This document shows positions 23,362 through 32,504 of a stretch of 64,000 bases of DNA, one piece after another; positions within the stretch are counted from its first letter, which is position 1; every line of letters begins with the position of its first letter. The position numbers and the translations under genes were made by a program. The stretch is from Butyrivibrio fibrisolvens 16/4. Lineage in GTDB: Bacteria; Bacillota; Clostridia; Lachnospirales; Lachnospiraceae. The notes beneath the pieces were generated by a model that worked only from the letters and a program-made list of their open reading frames with translations, made no database searches and was not told where the DNA came from. The DNA is taken from positions 1,745,906 to 1,809,905 of the forward strand of contig FP929036.1 of assembly GCA_000209815.1 (NCBI GenBank). The letters run 5' to 3'.

Positions 23362-24357
23362 TTACCATCCATATCCAAACGATGGCCCGTAGTTTGCAGC
23401 ATAACCACATTCAAAGTCATCCTTATACTGCCCCGTATGCTTATCAACTAATAGATTGCAATTTGATACATCAAGGGTGATTTGTACATCTCCACCAGTT
23501 GTGATTGCCTGCATATCATTCCAGGTACAGTCAACAACCAGCCATTTACCGTCTACATATACTCGGTTCCAAATGTGATTAATGGCGTGGGAACTGTCTG
23601 TGATATTAGGCACACCACATAAATCTAACATATAGCCACATCTAGCCGTGTAATCCTCGCATATGCCTGCTATTGTTCCTGTATCAGTTTTATTCCAAGG
23701 CTTTGTCTTACCTATACGCTCATAATCATAATAGTAGTTTTCAATTACCCACTGATTAACTGCACATACCTTTTCTCTGTCAGTCATACCTGCTCTGATA
23801 ATTGAATTAAGTGCATCAATAGACTGATTAAAGTAAGTATCGTAAGTGCTATAACCCATACGACCTTCGTAGATACCTGTTTTAGAAAAGTGATTCCAAA
23901 GAGCATCGTGATTTGTTCCTACGACTGCAGCTACATCTGGATTCTCTGCTGCATATCTTGCTGAATCAAATGAGCCACCTCTTTTAAGGTTAGGACCGAG
24001 GCCCGAATTAAACTGACCTAGATAAATATGTACAGGCATCTTACACCAAGCATATCCTGACTGATCTGGATCAGCATTTAATTCTGTAAATTTCTTTAAA
24101 GCTTCATTCTGGTAATAATCCAGTACTGCTGCATAATTATTTCCACGAGCATCCTGCTCTGCCCACTCTTTTTGAATATCCTCATATGAAATATATTCAT
24201 AGTAAACCTCTCCGTTTGTTTTCATGATTGGAATACAGATAAGGTCATCATTATTTTCTTTAGCATTTGCTGTCATAGAAAATGCCGGTACTACCATGCA
24301 TGCTACTAATGCTGTAGATATAATTGTTGTTGCAATCTTTCTAAAACTCATAGTCAT
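23362..24357 (-). CDS. Secreted transglutaminase-like cysteine protease fold protein
   Basis: A signal peptide (residues 1-32, ending SMTANA) precedes a 300-residue extracellular protein. The C-terminal half is a transglutaminase-core domain: GICEDYTARCGYMLDLCGVP (catalytic Cys), SHAINHIWNRVYVDGKW (His) and VVDCTWND (Asp). The middle (ARYAAENPDVAAVVGTNHDA) resembles repeats found in extracellular Firmicute proteins. The role is probably protein cross-linking or peptide cleavage at the surface; unproven. AGGAGG precedes the ATG, 5 bases after a short GGC-GATA-GCC hairpin that could affect access. Confidence 0.83.
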   Translation of the reverse strand: MTMSFRKIATTIISTALVACMVVPAFSMTANAKENNDDLICIPIMKTNGEVYYEYISYEDIQKEWAEQDARGNNYAAVLDYYQNEALKKFTELNADPDQSGYAWCKMPVHIYLGQFNSGLGPNLKRGGSFDSARYAAENPDVAAVVGTNHDALWNHFSKTGIYEGRMGYSTYDTYFNQSIDALNSIIRAGMTDREKVCAVNQWVIENYYYDYERIGKTKPWNKTDTGTIAGICEDYTARCGYMLDLCGVPNITDSSHAINHIWNRVYVDGKWLVVDCTWNDMQAITTGGDVQITLDVSNCNLLVDKHTGQYKDDFECGYAANYGPSFGYGW

Positions 24358-24531
24358 ATATTTCCTCCTTGGCTATCGCCTCAGTTATGATACAACCATC
24401 ATTTTCAAAGTGTCAATATTATATAACTATACATAAGGTGTATTATTTGTGAAATGGTGCAAAAAAATGGGTAATATCCCACAGATATGCCGATTGTTCT
24501 TTTCTATGGACAGAAATATTGATATTTACTG

Positions 24532-24557
24532 AGGTTACTGAAAACAGTAACCTTTTT
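24532..24557 (+). terminator. Plus-strand terminator with no upstream gene
   Basis: A perfect 9-bp stem AGGTTACTG / CAGTAACCT with an AAAA loop and TTTTTCT tail. The gene on its 5' side (starting at 24357) runs the other way, so no annotated plus-strand transcript ends here. A short untranslated RNA from about 24430 to 24557, containing the small hairpin GGGTAATATCCC, is possible. Confidence 0.6.
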
Positions 24558-24604
24558 CTATATGCAGAGTGTTTTAATATGTATATATGAAACAAAAACG
24601 GGAA

Positions 24605-24682
24605 ATATGGTAATTAAAACTTTTATTTAGCTCTCTAATCAACTAAAATAAAGAAATTAACAAATTCGAATTTGTGGGGAGG
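24605..24682 (+). promoter_or_regulatory. Conserved promoter/leader element, copy 2 of 3
   Basis: Aligned with 10936-11010 and 31767-31836: ATATGGTAATTAAA, a TAAAAT -10 candidate inside CAACTAAAATAAAG, and an ATTTG segment followed by the ribosome binding site of the HAD gene. It is the most diverged copy, and the palindrome is imperfect here. Confidence 0.55.
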
Positions 24683-24687
24683 CGCGT

Positions 24688-25383
24688 ATGACCAAAGCGG
24701 TTATATTTGACATGTTTGAAACCCTCGTTTCAATGTTTTCTGGTGATACTTATTTTAGCGAAGACATGGCGGCAGACTTAAAAATCCCAATCGATGATTT
24801 CAGAAATGCATGGCATACCACAGAACATGATAGAAGCTGCGGAAACTGCACAATAGAGGAAGGGATAAAAACGACTCTTGAAATGCTGGGGCGTTACAGC
24901 GAGGAATCTGTAAAACTTCTCGCAGATAAGCGAAGGAAGAATCTAGAAGGGATATTTGAACGAACTCCCGTGGAAACTATAGTTCTTTTGCAGGAGCTTA
25001 GTAGACGCGGCATAAAGATTGGACTTATAAGTAACTGTTATTCTGATGAAGCTGATGCTATTAGAAAAAGCTCTATTTTCCCGTACTTAGATGTCGTATT
25101 ACTTTCATATGAGCAGGGAATATGTAAGCCAGATTATGAAATATATAAAAAAGCAATGGAGGAGATGGGAATTACAGCTGAGGAATGCCTGTATGTCGGA
25201 GATGGCGGTTCAAAGGAGCTTTTTGCTGCCAGAGACCTTGGGATGAGATGCCTTCAGGCCTTGTATTTTGCTGATCTGGCTTTTGAACCACATATTCCAT
25301 GCTACAAACTTGATGATTTTGAACATGCATATAAGCAGAATGATATATTATGCGATTTTGCACTGGTGCAAAAAGGGAGATGA
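24688..25383 (+). CDS. HAD superfamily hydrolase, subfamily IA
   Basis: A 231-residue phosphatase-type protein: VIFDMFETLVSMFSG (motif I, with Asp and a Met in place of the second Asp region), GLISNCYSDE (motif II), KPDYEIYKKAM (motif III Lys) and CLYVGDGGSKELFAARDLGM (motif IV). The second Asp of the usual DxD (DxDxT) is replaced (FDMFET), as in haloacid-dehalogenase-like members, so the reaction may not be a simple phosphatase one. GGGGAGG precedes the ATG and is part of leader copy 2. Substrate unknown. Confidence 0.82.
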   Translation: MTKAVIFDMFETLVSMFSGDTYFSEDMAADLKIPIDDFRNAWHTTEHDRSCGNCTIEEGIKTTLEMLGRYSEESVKLLADKRRKNLEGIFERTPVETIVLLQELSRRGIKIGLISNCYSDEADAIRKSSIFPYLDVVLLSYEQGICKPDYEIYKKAMEEMGITAEECLYVGDGGSKELFAARDLGMRCLQALYFADLAFEPHIPCYKLDDFEHAYKQNDILCDFALVQKGR

Positions 25384-25439
25384 GTGACTATCGTTCAACT
25401 GGTAAATTGTTAGATCAGATTAATAGTGAAGAAAATTAA
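25380..25439 (+). CDS. Possible 19-residue peptide overlapping the HAD stop
   Basis: ATG 25380 overlaps the HAD stop (ATGA) and follows AAAGGGAG; the frame reads MSDYRSTGKLLDQINSEEN. There is no recognised family. It may be a chance frame or a remnant, but the coupling and ribosome binding site make it worth noting. Confidence 0.25.
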   Translation: MSDYRSTGKLLDQINSEEN

Positions 25440-25463
25440 TAAAAAATATTGGGGGAATATTCT

Positions 25464-26018
25464 ATGCAACCAGAAATAACATTGGGAATAGTAACTGTAC
25501 TTTGTTCAACGGCAATAAGTATATGTGGTATCACTATGGGGTGGTTTGGGAGAAAACATTCAGTCGAGCATACGGAGTATTACAAGGAAAGACAGGATGC
25601 TGCGAATATAATATCTTCTTATGCAGAAGTTGCATCTGCAGATTATTTACAAATATTTTATCAGAGAGCAAGTGCTGTAAAGACAACTGAAGGTTTAGAT
25701 GTTTTTACTAGTGTCATGCAGAAACATCAATCTGCATTAAACATGTATACTTTTCAATTATTATCTATTATTGATGAGGATAATGATAAATTAAGAGAAG
25801 CTCTGATAGAATATAAGAGGTTGACTAGAGGCTGTTTAATATATCTCACTGATTTAAAAGCCGCTGCTTCAATAGCTAATGAATTGGTTGATCAGTCTGT
25901 GATTAATGATAGACAAAGTAAGGTAAGTAATCGTATTCAGGAAATATATGATATTGAGAAACCAATACAGGAAGAGTTACAAAAACTGTTAGCTCACTAT
26001 TTAAAGCGAATAAAATAG
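25464..26018 (+). CDS. Hypothetical protein, N-terminal membrane helix and helical domain
   Basis: 184 residues from ATG 25464 (GGGGGAA upstream). One membrane segment near the N-terminus (LGIVTVLCSTAISICGITMG) is followed by a charged, almost wholly helical region of about 150 residues, probably cytoplasmic and coiled-coil-like. I recognise no family. It lies in the accessory stretch between the HAD gene and another small membrane protein. Confidence 0.6.
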   Translation: MQPEITLGIVTVLCSTAISICGITMGWFGRKHSVEHTEYYKERQDAANIISSYAEVASADYLQIFYQRASAVKTTEGLDVFTSVMQKHQSALNMYTFQLLSIIDEDNDKLREALIEYKRLTRGCLIYLTDLKAAASIANELVDQSVINDRQSKVSNRIQEIYDIEKPIQEELQKLLAHYLKRIK

Positions 26019-26128
26019 TTCAAAAAGCATATTACAATCCAACCATCAAGCTATGTATTTCCATATGTAAAGCTTTGGATAGAACATTAGATGAATTGTT
26101 TTGGGAGTAATTTTTGAGAGGAAAAACT

Positions 26129-26521
26129 ATGAAAAAATATAAGATAGCAGCAATTATCATGATTATTCATGGCGGATTCATGGAACTGGCTGGTGTGCTA
26201 TGTATGATACCTGCGTTGTTACTAGGAAATGATAAGTTTGATATAGGAAAGTTTTTTGAATTCAAGCTTCAATATTTCCAAGATAACATTTATATGATGA
26301 TTGTTATGGGGGCAATCTACGGTTTGATTAGACTGATTGGTGCTATAGGTCTACTAAAAAATAGAATGTGGGGTTTAGTGCTGTCGATAATCATCTGCAC
26401 AATAACCATTACGCTGATAATGTTTTTATTGCCAGCCGGCATTATGGATGGAATTCTTGCTGGAAGTGCATTGATATTGATTTTAATGGGATTTTATGGC
26501 GATAGAAAGATAACTAATTGA
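26129..26521 (+). CDS. Small membrane protein of unknown function
   Basis: 130 residues with four predicted membrane helices, beginning MKKYKIAAIIMIIHGGFMEL; the later helices are GAIYGLIRLIGAIGLLKNR and LVLSIIICTITITLIMFLLP. It resembles uncharacterised four-helix proteins of Clostridia. GAGAGGAAAA precedes ATG 26129. It ends 3 bases before the next start. Confidence 0.65.
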   Translation: MKKYKIAAIIMIIHGGFMELAGVLCMIPALLLGNDKFDIGKFFEFKLQYFQDNIYMMIVMGAIYGLIRLIGAIGLLKNRMWGLVLSIIICTITITLIMFLLPAGIMDGILAGSALILILMGFYGDRKITN

Positions 26522-26524
26522 AGT

Positions 26525-27000
26525 ATGAATATCACATTGGAAAAAAGAACTGCTGATTCTGTTAGAACTTATTTTGAAAAGGCAAAGAGACCGGAAATCA
26601 AGCAAGTATTACCGCAAAAGGCAAAAACAGTTGAAGAGGCATTAGCCGACTACGAACAAACTTTGCTGCCAGATGCACAAAGCTTCGGCCAAACAGTGTA
26701 TGTTGATGGAAAATATGTAGGTGATGTTTGGTGCTATTGTATTGATATGGATGATGAACCAAATTGCATGCTCAGTTTTTGCATTTTTGAACTTGAATAC
26801 TGGAATAAGGGCATAGCTACTACAGCAGTAAAAAATTTATTCAGAGTTTTTGCACTTTATACCATGTAAAAACCATTGGCGCCTTTACCTTTGCTCATAA
26901 TCAGGCTTCCATTAAAGTATTGGAAAAGAATGGTTTTGTCGTTATGGAAGAATTTGAAGATAATGCCATATTGTCAAAATATCTGCAATTGGAGTGCTGA
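26525..27000 (+). CDS. GNAT family N-acetyltransferase (frameshifted)
   Basis: An acetyltransferase of about 158 residues with the acetyl-CoA-side pattern FELEYWNKGIATTAVKNLF and, after the shift, the classic end TIGAFTFAHNQASIKVLEKN followed by GFVV. The first frame stops at 26869; one T missing near 26848-26852 (RVFCTLYHVKTIGAF) restores the whole. Related enzymes acetylate amino groups of ribosomal proteins or small molecules; substrate unknown. It follows the membrane protein gene by 3 bases. Confidence 0.78.
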
Positions 27001-27055
27001 TATATCGGAATTTACGGAGGAAAAATGCTTAAAAATAGCCTTGGAGGTAAATAAT

Positions 27056-27271
27056 ATGAGCGATAACAGTGTATTTAATAGTATTATGACAGGTCTTAAT
27101 GAAGCTCTGGAAGATGCTAAAAGTGAAAGACCTATTCTTAAAAGACATAAGGTTACGGTAGAAACTGTAAAAATTTATGAAGCAGCAGAAGTTAAGAAAA
27201 TAAGAAAATCAACTGTATACCATGATTTTACAAAGGTTACTGCAAAAAATGTGGTAGCCTTTTTTAGTTGA
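27056..27271 (+). pseudogene. Truncated XRE/HigA-type antitoxin gene cut by a 78-bp repeat
   Basis: 71 residues from ATG 27056 (GGAGG upstream). Residues 1-53 (FNSIMTGLNEALEDAKSE, then RHKVTVE and VKKIRKST) match the N-terminus of HigA-like helix-turn-helix antitoxins. Just where the DNA-binding domain should begin, the sequence runs into the 78-bp direct repeat (27216-27293), which supplies VYHDFTKVTAKNVVAFFS and a stop. The helix-turn-helix is lost and no toxin gene is next to it. This is a broken gene; the break point marks a rearrangement junction. Confidence 0.7.
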
Positions 27272-27293
27272 CAGGAACGGAAAAATAGTATCT
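27216..27293. repeat. 78-bp perfect direct repeat, left copy
   Basis: Identical over all 78 bases to 30147-30224. It begins TATACCATGATTTTACAAAG and ends AAAAATAGTATCT. The two copies enclose the Rrf2, cupin and radical SAM genes. The left copy interrupts the antitoxin gene and ends two bases before the first Rrf2 operator. Confidence 0.9.
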
Positions 27294-27294
27294 T

Positions 27295-27317
27295 GTTGTG
27301 ACTATTGTAACTACAAC
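27295..27317. promoter_or_regulatory. Rrf2 operator copy 1 (GTTGT-N13-ACAAC)
   Basis: GTTGT at 27295-27299 and ACAAC at 27313-27317, 13 bases apart. It lies 38 bases before the Rrf2 gene start. The same form occurs twice more upstream of the cupin gene, indicating autoregulation. Confidence 0.7.
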
Positions 27318-27354
27318 GAAAATGATTTAAGATAGAGTCGATGGAGGTGTCAGA

Positions 27355-27789
27355 ATGCAGATTTCAAGCAGATTTACAATAGCGGTTCATGTGCTTATAG
27401 CAATTGAAACATTTAAGAATGACAATAAAATCACCAGTGAATTTCTTGCGTCCAGCGCAAATGTAAATCCGACGGTAATCAGAAGACTCTTGCAGCAGTT
27501 GAAGAAGGCGGAGATTGTAACAGTGAAGCGGGGAAGCGGCGGTGCCGATATAGAGAAATCCTTGACGGAGATAACGCTTCTGGATGTTTACAATGCCGTG
27601 GAGCCTGTCGAAAATGGACAGTTGTTTCATTTCCATGAGAATCCGAATGAGTTATGCCCTGTGGGACGGAACATTCACAGGATCATGGATCACAGGCTTG
27701 AAGAAATACAGAATGCCATGGAAGATAAAATGCGGCGAATAACCATAGCTGATGTAATGGCGGATGCGAACAAGCTGATAGAATTTTAA
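27355..27789 (+). CDS. Rrf2-family transcriptional regulator (YwnA-like)
   Basis: A 144-residue Rrf2 protein with the winged helix at residues 1-60 (SSRFTIAVHVLIAIETF, TSEFLASSANVNPTVIRRLL, VKRGSGGADI). It has a single Cys (NELCPVG) in the sensor region and lacks the three Cys that bind an Fe-S cluster in IscR/NsrR, so it is of the YwnA/HypR-like type, which senses oxidants, aldehydes or other stress through one Cys. GGAGG is 9 bases before ATG 27355. The dyads GTTGT-N13-ACAAC before its own gene and the cupin gene are its probable operators. Base composition is richer in GC than its surroundings. Confidence 0.87.
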   Translation: MQISSRFTIAVHVLIAIETFKNDNKITSEFLASSANVNPTVIRRLLQQLKKAEIVTVKRGSGGADIEKSLTEITLLDVYNAVEPVENGQLFHFHENPNELCPVGRNIHRIMDHRLEEIQNAMEDKMRRITIADVMADANKLIEF

Positions 27790-27797
27790 AAAGTTTT

Positions 27798-27836
27798 GTT
27801 GTAACACTTGACATCACAACAAGGCAGTGGTACACT
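27798..27836 (+). promoter_or_regulatory. Cupin-operon promoter overlapped by Rrf2 operator copy 2
   Basis: GTTGT-N13-ACAAC at 27798-27820 covers a perfect TTGACA -35 box (27808-27813); TACACT (27831-27836) follows after exactly 17 bases. Binding of a regulator here would block RNA polymerase. Confidence 0.75.
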
Positions 27837-27839
27837 CCC

Positions 27840-27862
27840 GTTGTATCAATCAACATTACAAC
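27840..27862. promoter_or_regulatory. Rrf2 operator copy 3 (GTTGT-N13-ACAAC)
   Basis: The third dyad of identical geometry, starting 4 bases after the -10 box and so over the transcription start. It is 42 bases from copy 2, or four helical turns, allowing two dimers on the same DNA face. Confidence 0.7.
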
Positions 27863-27879
27863 AAATGGAGGTATCAGAA

Positions 27880-28233
27880 ATGTCTAACTATAGTAAGGTA
27901 AGTGTTGCAAGCAATCCGAGAACTGAACTACATGATCAGCTGGGACTTACAGGGGCTGAGATCAGCATCAACCATCTTCCGGCAGGTGCGAGTGTTCCTT
28001 TTGTTCATTATCATAAGACCAATGAAGAGATTTACATCATTCTTTCCGGCAAGGGAAAAGCGGTAGTTGACGGTGAGGATATAGAGCTTTCTGCCGGTGA
28101 TATAGTGCGTATTGCGCCGGATGGGAAAAGACAGTTCTTCGCGGCAGATGATTCTGAGATCAGCTATGCCTGTATCCAGGTGAAGGCAGGTTCTCTTGAA
28201 GCGTATACCGCCGACGATGCAGTAATCGAGTAA
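27880..28233 (+). CDS. Cupin-domain protein
   Basis: A 117-residue single cupin: motif 1 PFVHYHKTNEEIYIILSGKG (His-x-His, Glu ligands) and motif 2 LSAGDIVRIAPDGKRQFFA. A metal-binding beta-barrel, common as quinone or aldehyde stress-related enzymes under Rrf2 or HxlR regulators. TGGAGG precedes ATG 27880. It lies directly behind the Rrf2-controlled promoter and is the regulator's most likely main target. The reaction is unknown. Confidence 0.87.
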   Translation: MSNYSKVSVASNPRTELHDQLGLTGAEISINHLPAGASVPFVHYHKTNEEIYIILSGKGKAVVDGEDIELSAGDIVRIAPDGKRQFFAADDSEISYACIQVKAGSLEAYTADDAVIE

Positions 28234-28245
28234 GTATGAGTTTTA

Positions 28246-28286
28246 AAGTTGTGGGCATTTCTGCAAGCAGATGTCCATAACTTTTT
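28246..28286 (+). terminator. Terminator/attenuator between cupin and radical SAM genes
   Basis: A 13-bp stem, AAGTTGTGGGCAT paired with ATGTCCATAACTT (two G-U pairs), followed by TTTTT. It lies 13 bases after the cupin stop and just before the radical SAM start, so it may lower or separate expression of the downstream pair. Confidence 0.7.
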
Positions 28287-28298
28287 ATGTGGAGAGCT

Positions 28299-28996
28299 AT
28301 GAGTATTTGTATTAAAGATCAGATTCAGAACATGAATCTTGTTATAGGGTGCACTGTTGGATGTCCGTACTGCTATGCCAGAAACAATACGAGGCGTTAT
28401 CACATCATAGATGATTTTGAAAAGCCACAGTTTTTTCAAGGCAAGCTTCGTATGATGGAAAAGAAAAAGCCGCAGAATTTTCTGCTGACCGGTATGAGCG
28501 ATCTCTCGGGCTGGCATGAGGAATGGAGAGAGGAAGTCTTTAAAAGATAGCAGAGAATCCTCAGCACCAGTTTCTTTTTCTTACCAAACGACCGGATTTT
28601 CTGTCTTTTGAAACAGATCTTGATAATGCATGGTTTGGCGTTACAGTTACGAGAAAATCTGAGTTATGGCATATTGATGCACTGCGGAGCAATGTAAGGG
28701 CAAAGCATTATCATGTGACCTTTGAGCCTTTGTTCGATGATCCGGGTAAGGTTGATCTTACAGGCATTGACTGGATTGTGGTGGGAACTATGACAGGTGC
28801 AAAGAGCAGGACTGTTAAAACAGATCCCGGATGGGTTTATTCATTGACAGAACAGGCTCATGAACTGAAAATTCCTGTATTCTGGAAAGAAGATCTTGTT
28901 CCGATTATGGGAGAAGAAATGATACAGGAAATGCCGGATGCTTTTAACAAAGTGTTGGAGGAACAGAGGATATGGAACAACCAGAAATCAAAGTAA
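28299..28996 (+). CDS. Radical SAM mobile pair protein A-like (frameshifted)
   Basis: About 232 residues. CTVGCPYCYAR holds the Cys-x3-Cys-x2-Cys motif that binds the 4Fe-4S cluster. The rest resembles DUF5131/phage Gp37-type radical SAM proteins (LTKRPDFLSFET, NAWFGVTVTRKSE, TFEPLFDD, DWIVVGTMTGAKS). Together with the next gene it fits the radical SAM 'mobile pair' A/B as I remember it from NCBI families. One A missing near 28545 joins the two parts. ATG 28299 has GGAG upstream. The substrate is unknown; DNA or protein repair-like chemistry is possible. Confidence 0.78.
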
Positions 28997-29895
28997 ATCA
29001 TATAGAAACAAAAAGTGTAATGACAAAATCGAATACTCCTATTGGAGGATATTCGGTGAATCCCTATGTGGGGTGCCCCCATGCCTGTAAATACTGCTAT
29101 GCATCTTTTATGAAACGCTTTACAGGGCATACGGAAGAATGGGGAACCTTCATGGATGTGAAAGACTGGCCTGAAATAAAGAATCCTAAGAAGTATGCCG
29201 GCCAGAAGGTGATTATTGGAACAGTTACGGATGGTTATAATCCGCTAGAGGAAACATATAAAAATACAAGAAGACTTCTGGAAGAACTAAAGGACAGTGG
29301 TGCGGACATACTTATCTGCACAAAGTCAGACCTTGTACTAAGAGATCTGGAACTGCTAAAAGAGATCAATGAAAATAGCAGACTTACAGTATCATGGTCA
29401 ATCAATACTCTCGATGAAGAGTTTAAAGATGATATGGATGCGGCAGTAAGCATAGAAAGAAGGCTTGCTGCAATGAAAGAGGTATATGCGGCAGGCATTC
29501 GTACAATTTGCTTCATTTCACCCGTGTTCCCGGGGATTACGGATATAGAGGCAATCATAGACAGGACAAAAGATCAGTGTGACCTTGTATGGCTTGAGAA
29601 TCTGAATCTTCGCGGAGGGTTTAAGGCAGATATCATGAAATACATTTCCGATAAACATCCGGATCTGGTGCCACTGTATGACGAAATCTATAACAAAAAG
29701 AACCGCAGCTATTTTGAAGCACTAGAAAGGAAAGCAGAAGAGCTGGCTAAAAAGTATGATTGCAGGTTTGTTGATAATGAAACTCCGTATGAGAGAGTAG
29801 AAAAAGGACATCCAACAATCGTAGATTACTTTTACCACGAAGAAGTAAGAGGAACTGCCAATAGTGGAAAGAGAAATGTAATACATAATCCTTGA
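28972..29895 (+). CDS. Radical SAM mobile pair protein B-like
   Basis: A 307-residue radical SAM protein with NPYVGCPHACKYCYASF (Cys-x3-Cys-x2-Cys) followed by the partial TIM-barrel (VIIGTVTDGYNPLEETYKNT, DILICTKSDLVLRDLELL, VSWSINTLDEEF). It is close to SplB-related Rv2578c/PA0069-like proteins. ATG 28972 overlaps the end of protein A by 25 bases with GGAGG upstream, so the two are made together. It ends 15 bases before the 204-bp repeat that supplies its terminator. The pair is reported mostly on mobile DNA, in line with the flanking repeats here. Confidence 0.83.
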   Translation: MEQPEIKVNHIETKSVMTKSNTPIGGYSVNPYVGCPHACKYCYASFMKRFTGHTEEWGTFMDVKDWPEIKNPKKYAGQKVIIGTVTDGYNPLEETYKNTRRLLEELKDSGADILICTKSDLVLRDLELLKEINENSRLTVSWSINTLDEEFKDDMDAAVSIERRLAAMKEVYAAGIRTICFISPVFPGITDIEAIIDRTKDQCDLVWLENLNLRGGFKADIMKYISDKHPDLVPLYDEIYNKKNRSYFEALERKAEELAKKYDCRFVDNETPYERVEKGHPTIVDYFYHEEVRGTANSGKRNVIHNP

Positions 29896-29909
29896 TTGAA
29901 GAAAAACCG

Positions 29910-30113
29910 GAAGTTAATCGCAAAAATTCCAGTTTGTCTAACTAAATAAACATATTATAAGGAGCTGGTTTAGCTCCTTTAATTATGCCTGTTATTTCCA
30001 GAACTAAATGCAACAGTAATGTATGTTTTGCTTTTACCTCTATAATGTTGCATTAAGTTTAAGAAATTTGCATTTACATAAAAAAGTTACTCTAAAGTTA
30101 CTAGTACAAAAAG
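29910..30113. repeat. 204-bp interspersed repeat, copy A, with terminator
   Basis: Similar over its full length to 32676-32878 (roughly 80% by eye). It contains GGAGCT...AGCTCC followed by TTTAATT (29961-29983), the terminator of the radical SAM operon, then TTCCAG, the arms AACTAAATGCAA and TTGCATTAAGTT of an imperfect palindrome, and GCATTTACAT with a TTAC-rich end. There is no open frame of note. With the 78-bp repeat and the palindrome at 30285 it makes up the 480-base gap between radical SAM protein B and the IS30 transposase. Confidence 0.7.
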
Positions 30114-30146
30114 CGTCACTTCCAGAGGTAAATGCAAAAAATCCTA

Positions 30147-30224
30147 TATACCATGATTTTACAAAGGTTACTGCAAAAAATGTGGTAGCCTTTTTTAGTT
30201 GACAGGAACGGAAAAATAGTATCT
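30147..30224. repeat. 78-bp perfect direct repeat, right copy
   Basis: Identical to 27216-27293. To its left is TTCCAGAGGTAAATGCAAAA, related to the palindrome family of this region; to its right is unrelated AT-rich sequence. The distance between the copies is 2.85 kb and covers the whole Rrf2/cupin/radical SAM module. Confidence 0.9.
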
Positions 30225-30284
30225 AAGAGCCTTATTTTTCAATATTTAAGCATGCCAAAAAGGCCTTTAACACAAGCTTTCCAG

Positions 30285-30331
30285 AACTTAATGCTAAATG
30301 CCTGGATAGAATCCATATATTGCATTAAGTT
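30285..30331. repeat. Palindromic repeat AACTTAATGC...GCATTAAGTT at the IS30 edge
   Basis: Arms at 30285-30294 and 30322-30331 are exact complements, 27 bases apart, preceded by TTCCAG as in repeats A and B. Its right arm shares three bases with the left inverted repeat of the IS30 element, suggesting that the element went into or beside this palindrome. Confidence 0.55.
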
Positions 30332-31731
30332 CTGCAAACCGATAATTGTGTTATACTTTACTCGAATTAATTTTTATTAATACTCAGGTTTACGCAACAA
30401 CCAAGGCTTTAAAACAACGTCATCACGCTCAATTTTGACAGCATTTAAAGCCTTCAAAAATTCATCACCTAAAAGAAGCTTAGCTAATTCGTATGGGGAT
30501 ACATTATTTAAGCTTTCACGGGGATAATTGTTGATGTGGTTCATCAAAAGATGAATGTCAGATTGGGAAAGGTCATTAAAGCTTTTCCCTTTCGACAGAA
30601 CCTGTCTAATAAACTCATGATTTCTTTCGAGCATCCCTTTTTGCCATGAGCAATAAGGATCGCAGTAAAACAGCTTTGTTTTGATTTCTCCATTTCTATC
30701 ACATTCAATAGCATACGGATTACCAAATTCTGTTCCACGGTCAGCTAAAATGACCTGAAAGAGCTTTTGAAACAGCTCAATTCCAAGCTTATCGCATATG
30801 TCATTTATAGCTTCAATTACGGCCATTTGATTGTGTTCTTTCAGAAGACATATAATCATAAATCCTGATTTACGATGTAGCATTGTCATGAAGCTGTAGC
30901 CGCCTATGGCACCTATCACAGTATCTAATTCCCAAATGTTTAAATCAGGCTTATCCTCAATGAATTTTTGAAAATCATTGTAGGTTCTCTTGAATACAAA
31001 GTCCTGGAAGCTCTTTGGTCGATTTCCGTGGCTATAACGAGGCTTAAATCGGACTTTTCTTGGCATATCTATGTTTCTAGCGGTAAGATAGCAGCGGTCT
31101 ACGTATTCATAGAGTGTACTAGCTGAACAAGGGATTTCATCCTTATGATTTGCATAAATAGTCCTTATAGATTGGCCTTTTAGAAGAAGAGGAGATACTA
31201 AGTTATCAAGTTGTTCCATTTCTTCTGCAGAAAGTGTTATTCCGCCTCTAGACTCTTTAAGCTTATCTTCATATACAATCTGAGCTCGTCTGGCTTGATA
31301 CTTGTATTTAGCAGAAAATGCGCTTATACGGCAAGGATTTTCACTGCAGCCATTGCATACATATGGAGATTTTAGTAGCTTAGGGCAAATGTATGGCTTA
31401 TATTCAGGGCATTTATCGCTGTTACAGTAGTCATCGCAACCGCTACAAGACATATGTCTGCATTTACCACTTTGGCATAAGTTTATGACTGTACATGCAC
31501 CGGCACCAAACTGAAACTCGCATTTCTCTTTAGTGGCAGTATGACAAACATATCGGTTTCTTTGTACTTCACGAACGATAGAAGAGTCAGGCCTGCCAAG
31601 CTTTTGCGCAATCTTATGGATTTTTTCTCCCTTATTTAGTAGATCTTCAATTATAGAACGTTCTTCAAATGTAAGATGTTTATTATTCATGTGATTACCT
31701 CCAAATTCTATAGGTAATCGATTTGCAGAAC
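30329..31731 (-). mobile_element. IS30-family insertion sequence
   Basis: About 1.4 kb with one transposase gene and imperfect terminal inverted repeats: GTTCTGCAAACCGAT at 30329-30343, and the complement of ATCGATTTGCAGAAC at 31717-31731 (14 of 15 match). I could not make out a clear target duplication. The transposase frame is intact, so the element may still be active. Confidence 0.75.
30377..31690 (-). CDS. IS30-family transposase
   Basis: 437 residues. The N-terminal helix-turn-helix (HLTFEERSIIEDLLNKGEKI, IAQKLGRPDSSIVREVQRNR) binds the ends. A Cys-rich insert at residues 50-125 with about fourteen Cys is typical of the long IS30 transposases of Clostridia and probably binds zinc. The DDE integrase core has WELDTVIG (first Asp), ILADRGTEFGNP (second Asp) and GMLERNHEFIRQVL (Glu). 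The length is normal and the frame is whole, unlike many genes in this window. GGAGG precedes the ATG. Confidence 0.92.
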   Translation of the reverse strand: MNNKHLTFEERSIIEDLLNKGEKIHKIAQKLGRPDSSIVREVQRNRYVCHTATKEKCEFQFGAGACTVINLCQSGKCRHMSCSGCDDYCNSDKCPEYKPYICPKLLKSPYVCNGCSENPCRISAFSAKYKYQARRAQIVYEDKLKESRGGITLSAEEMEQLDNLVSPLLLKGQSIRTIYANHKDEIPCSASTLYEYVDRCYLTARNIDMPRKVRFKPRYSHGNRPKSFQDFVFKRTYNDFQKFIEDKPDLNIWELDTVIGAIGGYSFMTMLHRKSGFMIICLLKEHNQMAVIEAINDICDKLGIELFQKLFQVILADRGTEFGNPYAIECDRNGEIKTKLFYCDPYCSWQKGMLERNHEFIRQVLSKGKSFNDLSQSDIHLLMNHINNYPRESLNNVSPYELAKLLLGDEFLKALNAVKIERDDVVLKPWLLRKPEY

Positions 31732-31766
31732 AGTATTAGTATAATTCTAATGAACAAATATTGAAA

Positions 31767-31836
31767 ATATGGTAATTAAAGCTTTATTTAGGCTGTTAAA
31801 TCAACTAAAATAAAGACATTGATAAATCGGCATTTG
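31767..31836 (+). promoter_or_regulatory. Conserved promoter/leader element, copy 3 of 3
   Basis: Almost identical to copy 1: ATGGTAATTAAAGCTTTA, CAACTAAAATAAAGACATTG and ATAAATCGGCATTTG are shared. It begins 36 bases beyond the IS30 right end and drives the membrane-protein genes that follow. Confidence 0.6.
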
Positions 31837-31864
31837 TTAAGCTTGATAAATGAAGGGATAATTG

Positions 31865-32022
31865 ATGGCAAAAAATAACAAAAAGTAACTAACATATTTG
31901 AGGTTATTAGTAGATTACCTGATGTGGAATTTAAACATTCATTTATTCCACCATTATTTTTATTGTGCGGATTTACACCATTCATCATAGATGGAATTGT
32001 TAATAAGTTTTTATGGTATTAA
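31865..32022 (+). CDS. Small hydrophobic protein of unknown function (frameshifted)
   Basis: ATG 31865 follows GAAGGGATAATTG. With one A added to the run at about 31880-31885 the frame reads AKNNKKVTNIFEVISRLPDV and then a hydrophobic stretch (FIPPLFLLCGFTPFIIDGIV) to a stop at 32022, about 52 residues. It overlaps the next frame by 10 bases. Given the error pattern in this window, one further missing T near 32010 would fuse it to the next gene (VNKFFMVLTIC), making a single protein. No family recognised. Confidence 0.45.
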
Positions 32023-32504
32023 CTATATGTATATTTATTTTATGTCCTTTTATTATGCTTATTTCTTTATTTGAAAAAGAAAAGGAATACAAACACATCA
32101 AAATGTTGATGGTATTTGAGAGCGAATTGATAGTAGTTTTAACAATTACTATAAACTTATTAGTCTATTATATTTTTGCTAATCTGTTGATTAACATAGC
32201 AATCACATTGCTTTTCATCGCGTTAAGAATATTTAAAATTTATCGACTTGAGAAAAAAATTGAGGAAAGAACATATGGATATAATATGGATGGAAAGGTT
32301 AACTTATCCATTATTGGATTGGCGAGTTATATCGGTGCTAGATGTGGAATCTCAGCAAATAATGCCACAAATCCAGCAATTAAAAGCGCCTATTTCCTAT
32401 TAATTTTGTTATTAATTGGAAATGTCCTTTTGATTTTATTTGCTGTGGATCCAATTGTTGCTTTTAGGATTAAGCTTAGAGAGAAAAATAAAGCGATGAA
32501 TTAA
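32013..32504 (+). CDS. Membrane protein of unknown function
   Basis: 163 residues with about four hydrophobic helices (VLTICIFILCPFIMLISLF at the start; two adjacent helices at residues 35-75; YFLLILLLIGNVLLILFAVD near the end) and a loop with many Asn and Gly residues (ARCGISANNATNPAIKSA). I do not recognise the family. It probably belongs with the frames before and after it, either as three overlapping genes or as parts of one gene broken by missing bases. Confidence 0.55.
   Translation: MVLTICIFILCPFIMLISLFEKEKEYKHIKMLMVFESELIVVLTITINLLVYYIFANLLINIAITLLFIALRIFKIYRLEKKIEERTYGYNMDGKVNLSIIGLASYIGARCGISANNATNPAIKSAYFLLILLLIGNVLLILFAVDPIVAFRIKLREKNKAMN

What the first reader, a model, noticed from the sequence alone, without database searches (positions are those of the whole stretch)
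27295..27862. Three operators of identical geometry (GTTGT-N13-ACAAC) control the module
Copies at 27295-27317, 27798-27820 and 27840-27862 have the same 5-13-5 form. One overlaps a perfect TTGACA -35 box and the next covers the transcription start, four helical turns apart. The regulator has only one Cys, suggesting a thiol-based sensor and not an Fe-S one. This predicts repression of both its own gene and the cupin/radical SAM unit.
Basis: partly seen in the sequence, partly recalled or inferred. Interest (0 to 1): 0.62.

Follow-up and report, generated by a model that had tools for sequence, protein, structure and literature searches.

The report
Thiol-sensor operators on a mobile cassette
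Three DNA sites in this bacterium fit the known landing site of a single-cysteine stress-sensing repressor, and they sit in a portable control block found in front of a mobile enzyme pair that elsewhere carries a quite different regulator.

Summary
The dyads are real and, by comparison, are operators. Of 29 diverged loci (regulator 55-73% identical), 16 have two or more such sites just after the regulator gene (reversed motif, one or more: 1 of 29); 19 of 28 have one before it (reversed: 0). In 16 of 16 pairs the first site encloses a -35-like hexamer, the second in none. The lone Cys101 is invariant in 27 of 27 aligned proteins and precedes helix 5, as in SifR and YwnA. Autorepression and cupin repression, relieved by a thiol-reactive signal, are well supported; nothing was measured. 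Corrections: exact four-turn spacing is not conserved (40-53 bp), and a terminator-like hairpin separates cupin from the radical SAM pair, which is probably reached by read-through. Beyond the finding: the operator-Rrf2-cupin block is a swappable control unit. The same radical SAM pair (95-98% DNA identity) sits elsewhere behind a MarR regulator, the joint lying at its start codon.

The parts
27295..27317 (.). Operator 1 (core 27297-27315), on the regulator's own promoter
   Evidence: a core site upstream of the regulator in 19 of 28 diverged loci, reversed control 0
27305..27333 (+). Predicted rrf2 promoter: TTGTAA (27305-27310), 17 bp, TAAGAT (27328-27333)
   Evidence: consensus match only, 4 of 6 in each hexamer
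27355..27789 (+). Rrf2-family regulator, 144 aa, single Cys101 (SifR/YwnA-like)
   Evidence: PF02082 E 1.7e-32; nearest solved 1ylf and 1xd7 YwnA
27798..27820 (.). Operator 2 (core 27800-27818), encloses the -35 box of the cupin promoter
27808..27836 (+). Predicted cupin promoter TTGACA-17-TACACT
   Evidence: consensus match only
27840..27862 (.). Operator 3 (core 27842-27860), at the predicted transcription start, 42 bp after operator 2
27880..28233 (+). Small cupin, 117 aa; nearest solved structure 3cew, named uncharacterized cupin
   Evidence: PF07883, phmmer E 2.6e-49
28245..28286 (+). Terminator-like hairpin with U-run between cupin and radical SAM A
   Evidence: 28230-28298 folds at -20.5 kcal/mol, z -3.06; relatives; not listed by the simple scan
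28299..28996 (+). radical SAM mobile pair protein A; reading frame broken in this genome
   Evidence: TIGR04471 in two separate frames, E 9e-51 and 8.7e-76
28972..29895 (+). radical SAM mobile pair protein B
   Evidence: TIGR04470 548.2 bits, cut-off 410

Best explanation
The dyads are operators of the adjacent Rrf2 protein, a monothiol repressor of the SifR/YwnA class. The reduced dimer covers the -35 region of its own promoter (site 1) and, at the cupin promoter, both the -35 (site 2) and the start (site 3), giving a tighter double lock there. Modification of Cys101, which caps helix 5, by a thiol-reactive compound (quinones are the best-supported class by homology) releases the DNA and induces the cupin. 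Transcription then meets a terminator-like hairpin, so the radical SAM pair is expressed mainly by read-through. The whole block (operators, Rrf2, cupin, hairpin) is a portable control unit found in place of the usual MarR regulator in front of the radical SAM mobile pair. Shown here: the sites, their conservation and placement, the protein class, the predicted hairpin, and the exchange. Inferred: binding, repression, Cys chemistry, signal, termination and read-through.
For: Two or more core sites after the regulator in 16 of 29 diverged loci (one site in 4 more) versus 1 of 29 with any reversed-motif site; 19 of 28 versus 0 upstream. Second collection: 24 of 29 loci with a core site at 1 or fewer mismatches (21 upstream, 10 downstream, 7 with a downstream pair), control 1 of 29. 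-35-like hexamer in the first site of 16 of 16 pairs, with a -10 in 14; second site 0 of 16. Among 17 near-identical blocks 5 of 46 operator columns vary against 10 of 19 between operators 2 and 3, Fisher p 0.0007, not corrected for relatedness. Cupin homologues next to an Rrf2 gene have the sites in 4 of 4; of 7 others, 5 have none and 2 one poor match. Cys101 invariant in 27 of 27, just before helix 102-128 in the model. Published SifR operator and Cys chemistry: PMC9218516. Block exchange.
Against: No binding or expression data. Window sites deviate from the exact published core by 1-2 bases. Operator columns (5 of 46) are not less variable than the coding parts of the same 17 blocks (Rrf2 15 of 435, cupin 15 of 354). 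The exact core TGTAA-N9-TTACA is in excess in the whole genome, 26 against 9 backwards, so the regulon may be wider or the core may have other users; contexts were not examined. The window protein reads HENPNELC where the class motif is HxxPNPxC. No sites in L026 (86% identical regulator); none at 1 or fewer mismatches in L028 and L030 or in L122, L123, L127, L128, L131; a few counted sites look spurious (L115; 3 of 19 upstream sites lack the -35). The hairpin may be a weak terminator or only a stabilising structure.
Confidence: 0.77

Rival explanations
1. One reading: one operon, in which the operators control cupin and both radical SAM genes together.
For: Same strand, 65-bp gap, A and B overlap. 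In L027 the hairpin is missing and radical SAM A starts 2 bp after the cupin stop. The simple terminator scan did not list the hairpin. Exchange of the block at the radical SAM A start codon suggests a functional link.
Against: Hairpin 28245-28286 followed by five U, with a stem still formed in the diverged L021-L024; L021 has Rrf2, cupin and hairpin without radical SAM genes.
Confidence: 0.4
2. The trigger is oxidation (hypochlorite, disulfide or S-thiolation) rather than quinone adduction.
For: Best NCBIfam hit is HypR, an oxidant sensor, though below cut-off (63.2 against 180 bits); same core operator (PMC9218516).
Against: HypR uses two Cys (C33, C99); only one is present here. Nearest solved relatives are 1ylf and YwnA. 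In 5 of 10 diverged loci scanned a gene after the regulator is NAD(P)-binding; the SifR regulon has a quinone reductase, YwnB.
Confidence: 0.3
3. The regulator senses through an Fe-S cluster or a metal with one Cys and His ligands.
For: H92, H94 and H108 invariant, H12 nearly so.
Against: IscR and NsrR use three Cys, RsrR two plus Glu8 and His12; position 8 is Thr in all 27 rows and the window protein has one Cys.
Confidence: 0.06
4. The dyads are chance or composition.
For: The 5-13-5 pattern does occur elsewhere: 6 other exact sites in the genome.
Against: Reversed-motif controls and conserved placement.
Confidence: 0.01

Closest known systems
SifR of Streptococcus pneumoniae and YwnA of Bacillus subtilis (monothiol Rrf2 repressors; PMC9218516)
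   Same: Rrf2 fold, conserved Cys capping helix 5, core operator TGTAA-N9-TTACA, redox genes next to some relatives
   Different: Here on a mobile module; predicted targets are itself and a cupin; two operators on the target promoter; one residue of the HxxPNPxC motif differs; SifR itself was not compared (sequence not held)
HypR of Staphylococcus aureus (dithiol Rrf2 hypochlorite sensor)
   Same: Same core operator as stated in PMC9218516; best NCBIfam match
   Different: Below the family cut-off; second Cys absent
Radical SAM mobile pair system (TIGR04470, TIGR04471, TIGR04472)
   Same: Pair A and B present; the pair is 95-98% identical in DNA to five copies behind the MarR regulator
   Different: The MarR regulator TIGR04472 is replaced by Rrf2-cupin with its own operators; pair A frame broken in this genome

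Membership tests
Monothiol SifR/YwnA Rrf2 repressors | Rrf2 domain and fold | tested here: met
   PF02082 E 1.7e-32; model pLDDT 87, top PDB matches 1ylf and 1xd7
Monothiol SifR/YwnA Rrf2 repressors | Single conserved Cys at the N-cap of helix 5 | tested here: met
   Cys101 invariant 27 of 27, helix 102-128 in the model; many relatives have extra Cys 16 or 84
Monothiol SifR/YwnA Rrf2 repressors | HxxPNPxC motif | tested here: inconclusive
   Window HENPNELC, one residue off; several relatives have PNPxC
Monothiol SifR/YwnA Rrf2 repressors | About 40% or more identity over 80% of the length (looser network grouping in PMC9218516) | tested here: met
   45% to YwnA over 128 positions, 49% to 1ylf over 133; the stricter grouping near 50% was not tested
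Monothiol SifR/YwnA Rrf2 repressors | Operator TGTAA-N9-TTACA | tested here: met
   1-2 mismatches in the window, exact in many relatives
Monothiol SifR/YwnA Rrf2 repressors | Reduced form binds DNA; quinone adduct releases it | not testable with these tools
   Needs purified protein
Fe-S Rrf2 regulators (IscR, NsrR, RsrR) | Two or three Cys ligands | tested here: not met
   One Cys in the window protein; only C101 invariant
HypR (NF041852) | Family score 180 bits; C33-C99 pair | tested here: not met
   63.2 bits; one Cys
Radical SAM mobile pair system | Pair B TIGR04470 over cut-off | tested here: met
   548.2 against 410 bits
Radical SAM mobile pair system | Pair A TIGR04471 over cut-off | tested here: inconclusive
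   Two fragments, 172.4 and 254.2 bits, against 355; frame broken here, in one frame in L005 and L008 by tblastn positions
Radical SAM mobile pair system | MarR regulator TIGR04472 directly upstream | tested here: not met
   Rrf2-cupin upstream instead; best TIGR04472 match in the genome E 1e-5

The most novel reading that the evidence does not exclude
The radical SAM mobile pair is a payload with interchangeable sensors: a complete control block is swapped at one fixed joint, the start codon of radical SAM A, so the same enzyme pair answers a MarR-type signal in one host and a thiol/quinone signal in another, with a leaky terminator metering the second form. The pair would then be a stress or detoxification enzyme whose signal can be read from its regulators.
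Probability: 0.35. Interest if true: 0.62.

Novelty: new variant of a known kind. Interest (0 to 1): 0.45.

Why it matters
The radical SAM mobile pair is shared almost unchanged between distant anaerobes, down to a Selenomonas plasmid of another class. Its family names give no function, and searches of the held library for those names found no paper. Finding it behind a second regulator whose class has a known chemistry, thiol-reactive quinones, gives a testable idea of when the pair or its companion cupin is needed. The data also extend the SifR/HypR operator to many anaerobic Firmicutes and show a recurrent promoter design, with one site on the -35 and a second near the start.

Tried and rejected
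Fe-S sensing: rejected on ligand count (with PMC9218516). Genome-wide regulon: the extended consensus gives no excess beyond the three module sites, but the plain core gives 26 sites against 9 backwards; their contexts were not followed up, so a wider regulon is not excluded. RNA element in the region: no Rfam match at gathering scores in 24000-32500. Phage carriage: no near match in the phage records; two IMG/VR contigs carry the module (L171, L172). Strict helical phasing of sites 2 and 3: rejected as a conserved feature. Print: 'radical SAM mobile pair' and its TIGR names gave no paper; Rrf2 with cupin and operon gave three papers, seen in the listing only; the other listings were read as listings except the two papers cited.

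Full report
What was checked. The three dyads are at the stated places. The genome has 9 exact copies of GTTGT-N13-ACAAC, 3 of them in this module, against 3 for the pattern read backwards. TTGACA lies within the second site with TACACT 17 bp downstream.

What the sites are. A tblastn-confirmed scan of one genome per species gave 53 loci with relatives of the regulator, L005-L057. In the diverged ones the sites resolve into GATGTAACTATTGACATTACAAC and, 40-53 bp later, GATGTAACAAACAAGGTTACAAC (majority letters of 16 pairs). Their core, TGTAA-N9-TTACA, is the operator reported for SifR and HypR. Of PMC9218516 I saw the abstract, sections 4 and 11, and passages.

Controls. L057, whose regulator gene is cut short, was left out. 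Among L028-L056 (29 loci, 55-73% protein identity) two or more core sites with 1 or fewer mismatches follow the regulator gene in 16, one site in 4 and none in 9; any reversed-motif site is found in 1 of 29. Upstream of the regulator the core is found in 19 of 28 (L029 left out, contig too short), reversed motif 0. In the order-wide genome set 94 of 295 genomes had a match; loci were given for 30 genomes, one being the window's own. Of the other 29, 24 have a core site with 1 or fewer mismatches (21 upstream, 10 downstream, 7 with a downstream pair), reversed motif 1; the five without are L122, L123, L127, L128 and L131, and the one in L115 looks spurious. Among the closest 23 loci (L005-L027), 22 carry all three sites at 2 or fewer mismatches; L026 carries none and has no cupin. 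In 17 near-identical blocks (16 loci plus the window; L008 left out because its spacer is 1 base longer) 5 of 46 operator columns vary, against 10 of the 19 bases between operators 2 and 3. Against a simple reading of that: the coding parts vary still less, 15 of 435 and 15 of 354 columns.

Promoter design. In all 16 diverged pairs the first site encloses a -35-like hexamer (4 or more of 6) at the same offset, with a -10 at 17 or 18 bp in 14; the second site does so in none. In the window the third site scores 4 of 6 (TCAACA) but has no -10 behind it. Upstream sites have the hexamer in 16 of 19 and the full design in 15. Pair spacing is 40-43 bp in 10 of 16 and 48-53 bp in 6, so the second site seems to follow the promoter and not a fixed helical phase.

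Regulon. With the extended consensus only the three module sites stand out in the genome. The exact core, which the window sites do not have, is in excess, 26 against 9 backwards; those contexts were not examined, so further targets are possible.

The regulator. Nearest solved relatives are 1ylf (49%) and YwnA 1xd7 (45%). In a 27-row alignment Cys101 is invariant, and in the model (pLDDT 87) it directly precedes helix 102-128. In SifR the single conserved Cys is likewise at the N-cap of helix 5. NCBIfam's HypR model matches below its cut-off. Genes after the regulator were scanned in 10 of the 29 diverged loci, not all directly adjacent: NAD(P)-binding in 5, pyridoxamine-oxidase-like in 2, an FMN reductase, a macro domain and an ECF transporter in 1 each. 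A preprint notes another single-Cys, SifR-like Rrf2 protein in Lachnospiraceae (PMC13404960, passages only).

The cupin as target. In the order set 12 near-full-length cupin hits have 47% or more identity (the window's own included); 11 had a locus. The 4 with an Rrf2 gene beside them have core sites upstream (one only, in L142). Of the 7 without, 5 have none (in L148 only 188 bp could be searched) and 2 (L150, L151) have one poor T-rich match.

The radical SAM pair. A hairpin with five U after it lies between cupin and radical SAM A: 28230-28298 folds at -20.5 kcal/mol, z -3.06, 1 of 200 shuffles as good. Diverged copies L021-L023 keep a stem and a T-run, L024 keeps the stem with a poor T-run, and L027 has lost it, radical SAM A following the cupin at once. 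The simple terminator scan did not list it. So I take the cupin to be the main target and the pair to depend on read-through.

Exchange of the control block. From operator 1 to the base before radical SAM A the window is 97-100% identical to L012, L014 and L020, except for the operator 2-3 stretch (92-94%); the radical SAM genes behind it are only 71-73% identical. Conversely, the window's radical SAM genes are 95-98% identical in L070, L071, L073, L195 and the Selenomonas plasmid pSRC6 (L173), all behind the MarR regulator of the mobile pair system. In L070, L071, L073 and the plasmid the similarity begins at 28299, the start codon; both forms share the first bases of the gene, so the joint is known to within a few bases. 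Of 41 loci classed (14 from the order set, 26 further ones from the family set, 1 plasmid), 27 have MarR plus pair A, 4 Rrf2/cupin plus pair A (one is the window), 3 another context with pair A, 7 no recognisable pair A, of which L189 has only 147 bp upstream. Matches without a fetched locus were not classed. The MarR form has a palindrome of its own on its promoter (seen by eye), so each block seems to bring its own operator.

What is not shown. No binding, expression or signal was measured. 'Quinone' rests on homology to SifR/YwnA alone. Whether the hairpin terminates is a prediction. The order of the exchanges was not reconstructed.

Noticed in passing
window 27213-27293 and 30144-30224: 81-bp direct repeats, 99% identical, each with a terminator-like hairpin, flank the module; in L005 and L008 the repeat was found only on the left side.
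   Followed up: partly
window 28299-28996: Radical SAM A reading frame is broken in this genome; by tblastn positions it is in one frame in L005 and L008.
   Followed up: partly
window 27821-27839: Bases between operators 2 and 3 are unusually variable (10 of 19 columns) among blocks that are otherwise nearly identical.
   Followed up: partly
own genome, 26 places listed: The exact core TGTAA-N9-TTACA occurs 26 times against 9 for the pattern read backwards; contexts not examined.
   Followed up: no
L173 (plasmid pSRC6, Selenomonas ruminantium): Same radical SAM pair at 97.6% on a mobilizable plasmid of another class, near a recombinase and a gene annotated as chloramphenicol acetyltransferase.
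   Followed up: no
L066, L177, L187: A cupin 65% identical to the window's lies in the opposite orientation 1.1-1.4 kb after the start of radical SAM B in MarR-type modules (cut by the locus end in L187).
   Followed up: no
G000:C1:1244286-1244549: A second, partial relative of the regulator with an internal stop, 48% identical, in the same genome.
   Followed up: no
window 30377-31690: IS30-family transposase gene just after the module.
   Followed up: no
L026: Regulator 86% identical but no cupin and no operators, apparently an orphan copy.
   Followed up: no
L098, L099: The MarR form carries a long palindrome on its promoter, a likely MarR operator.
   Followed up: no
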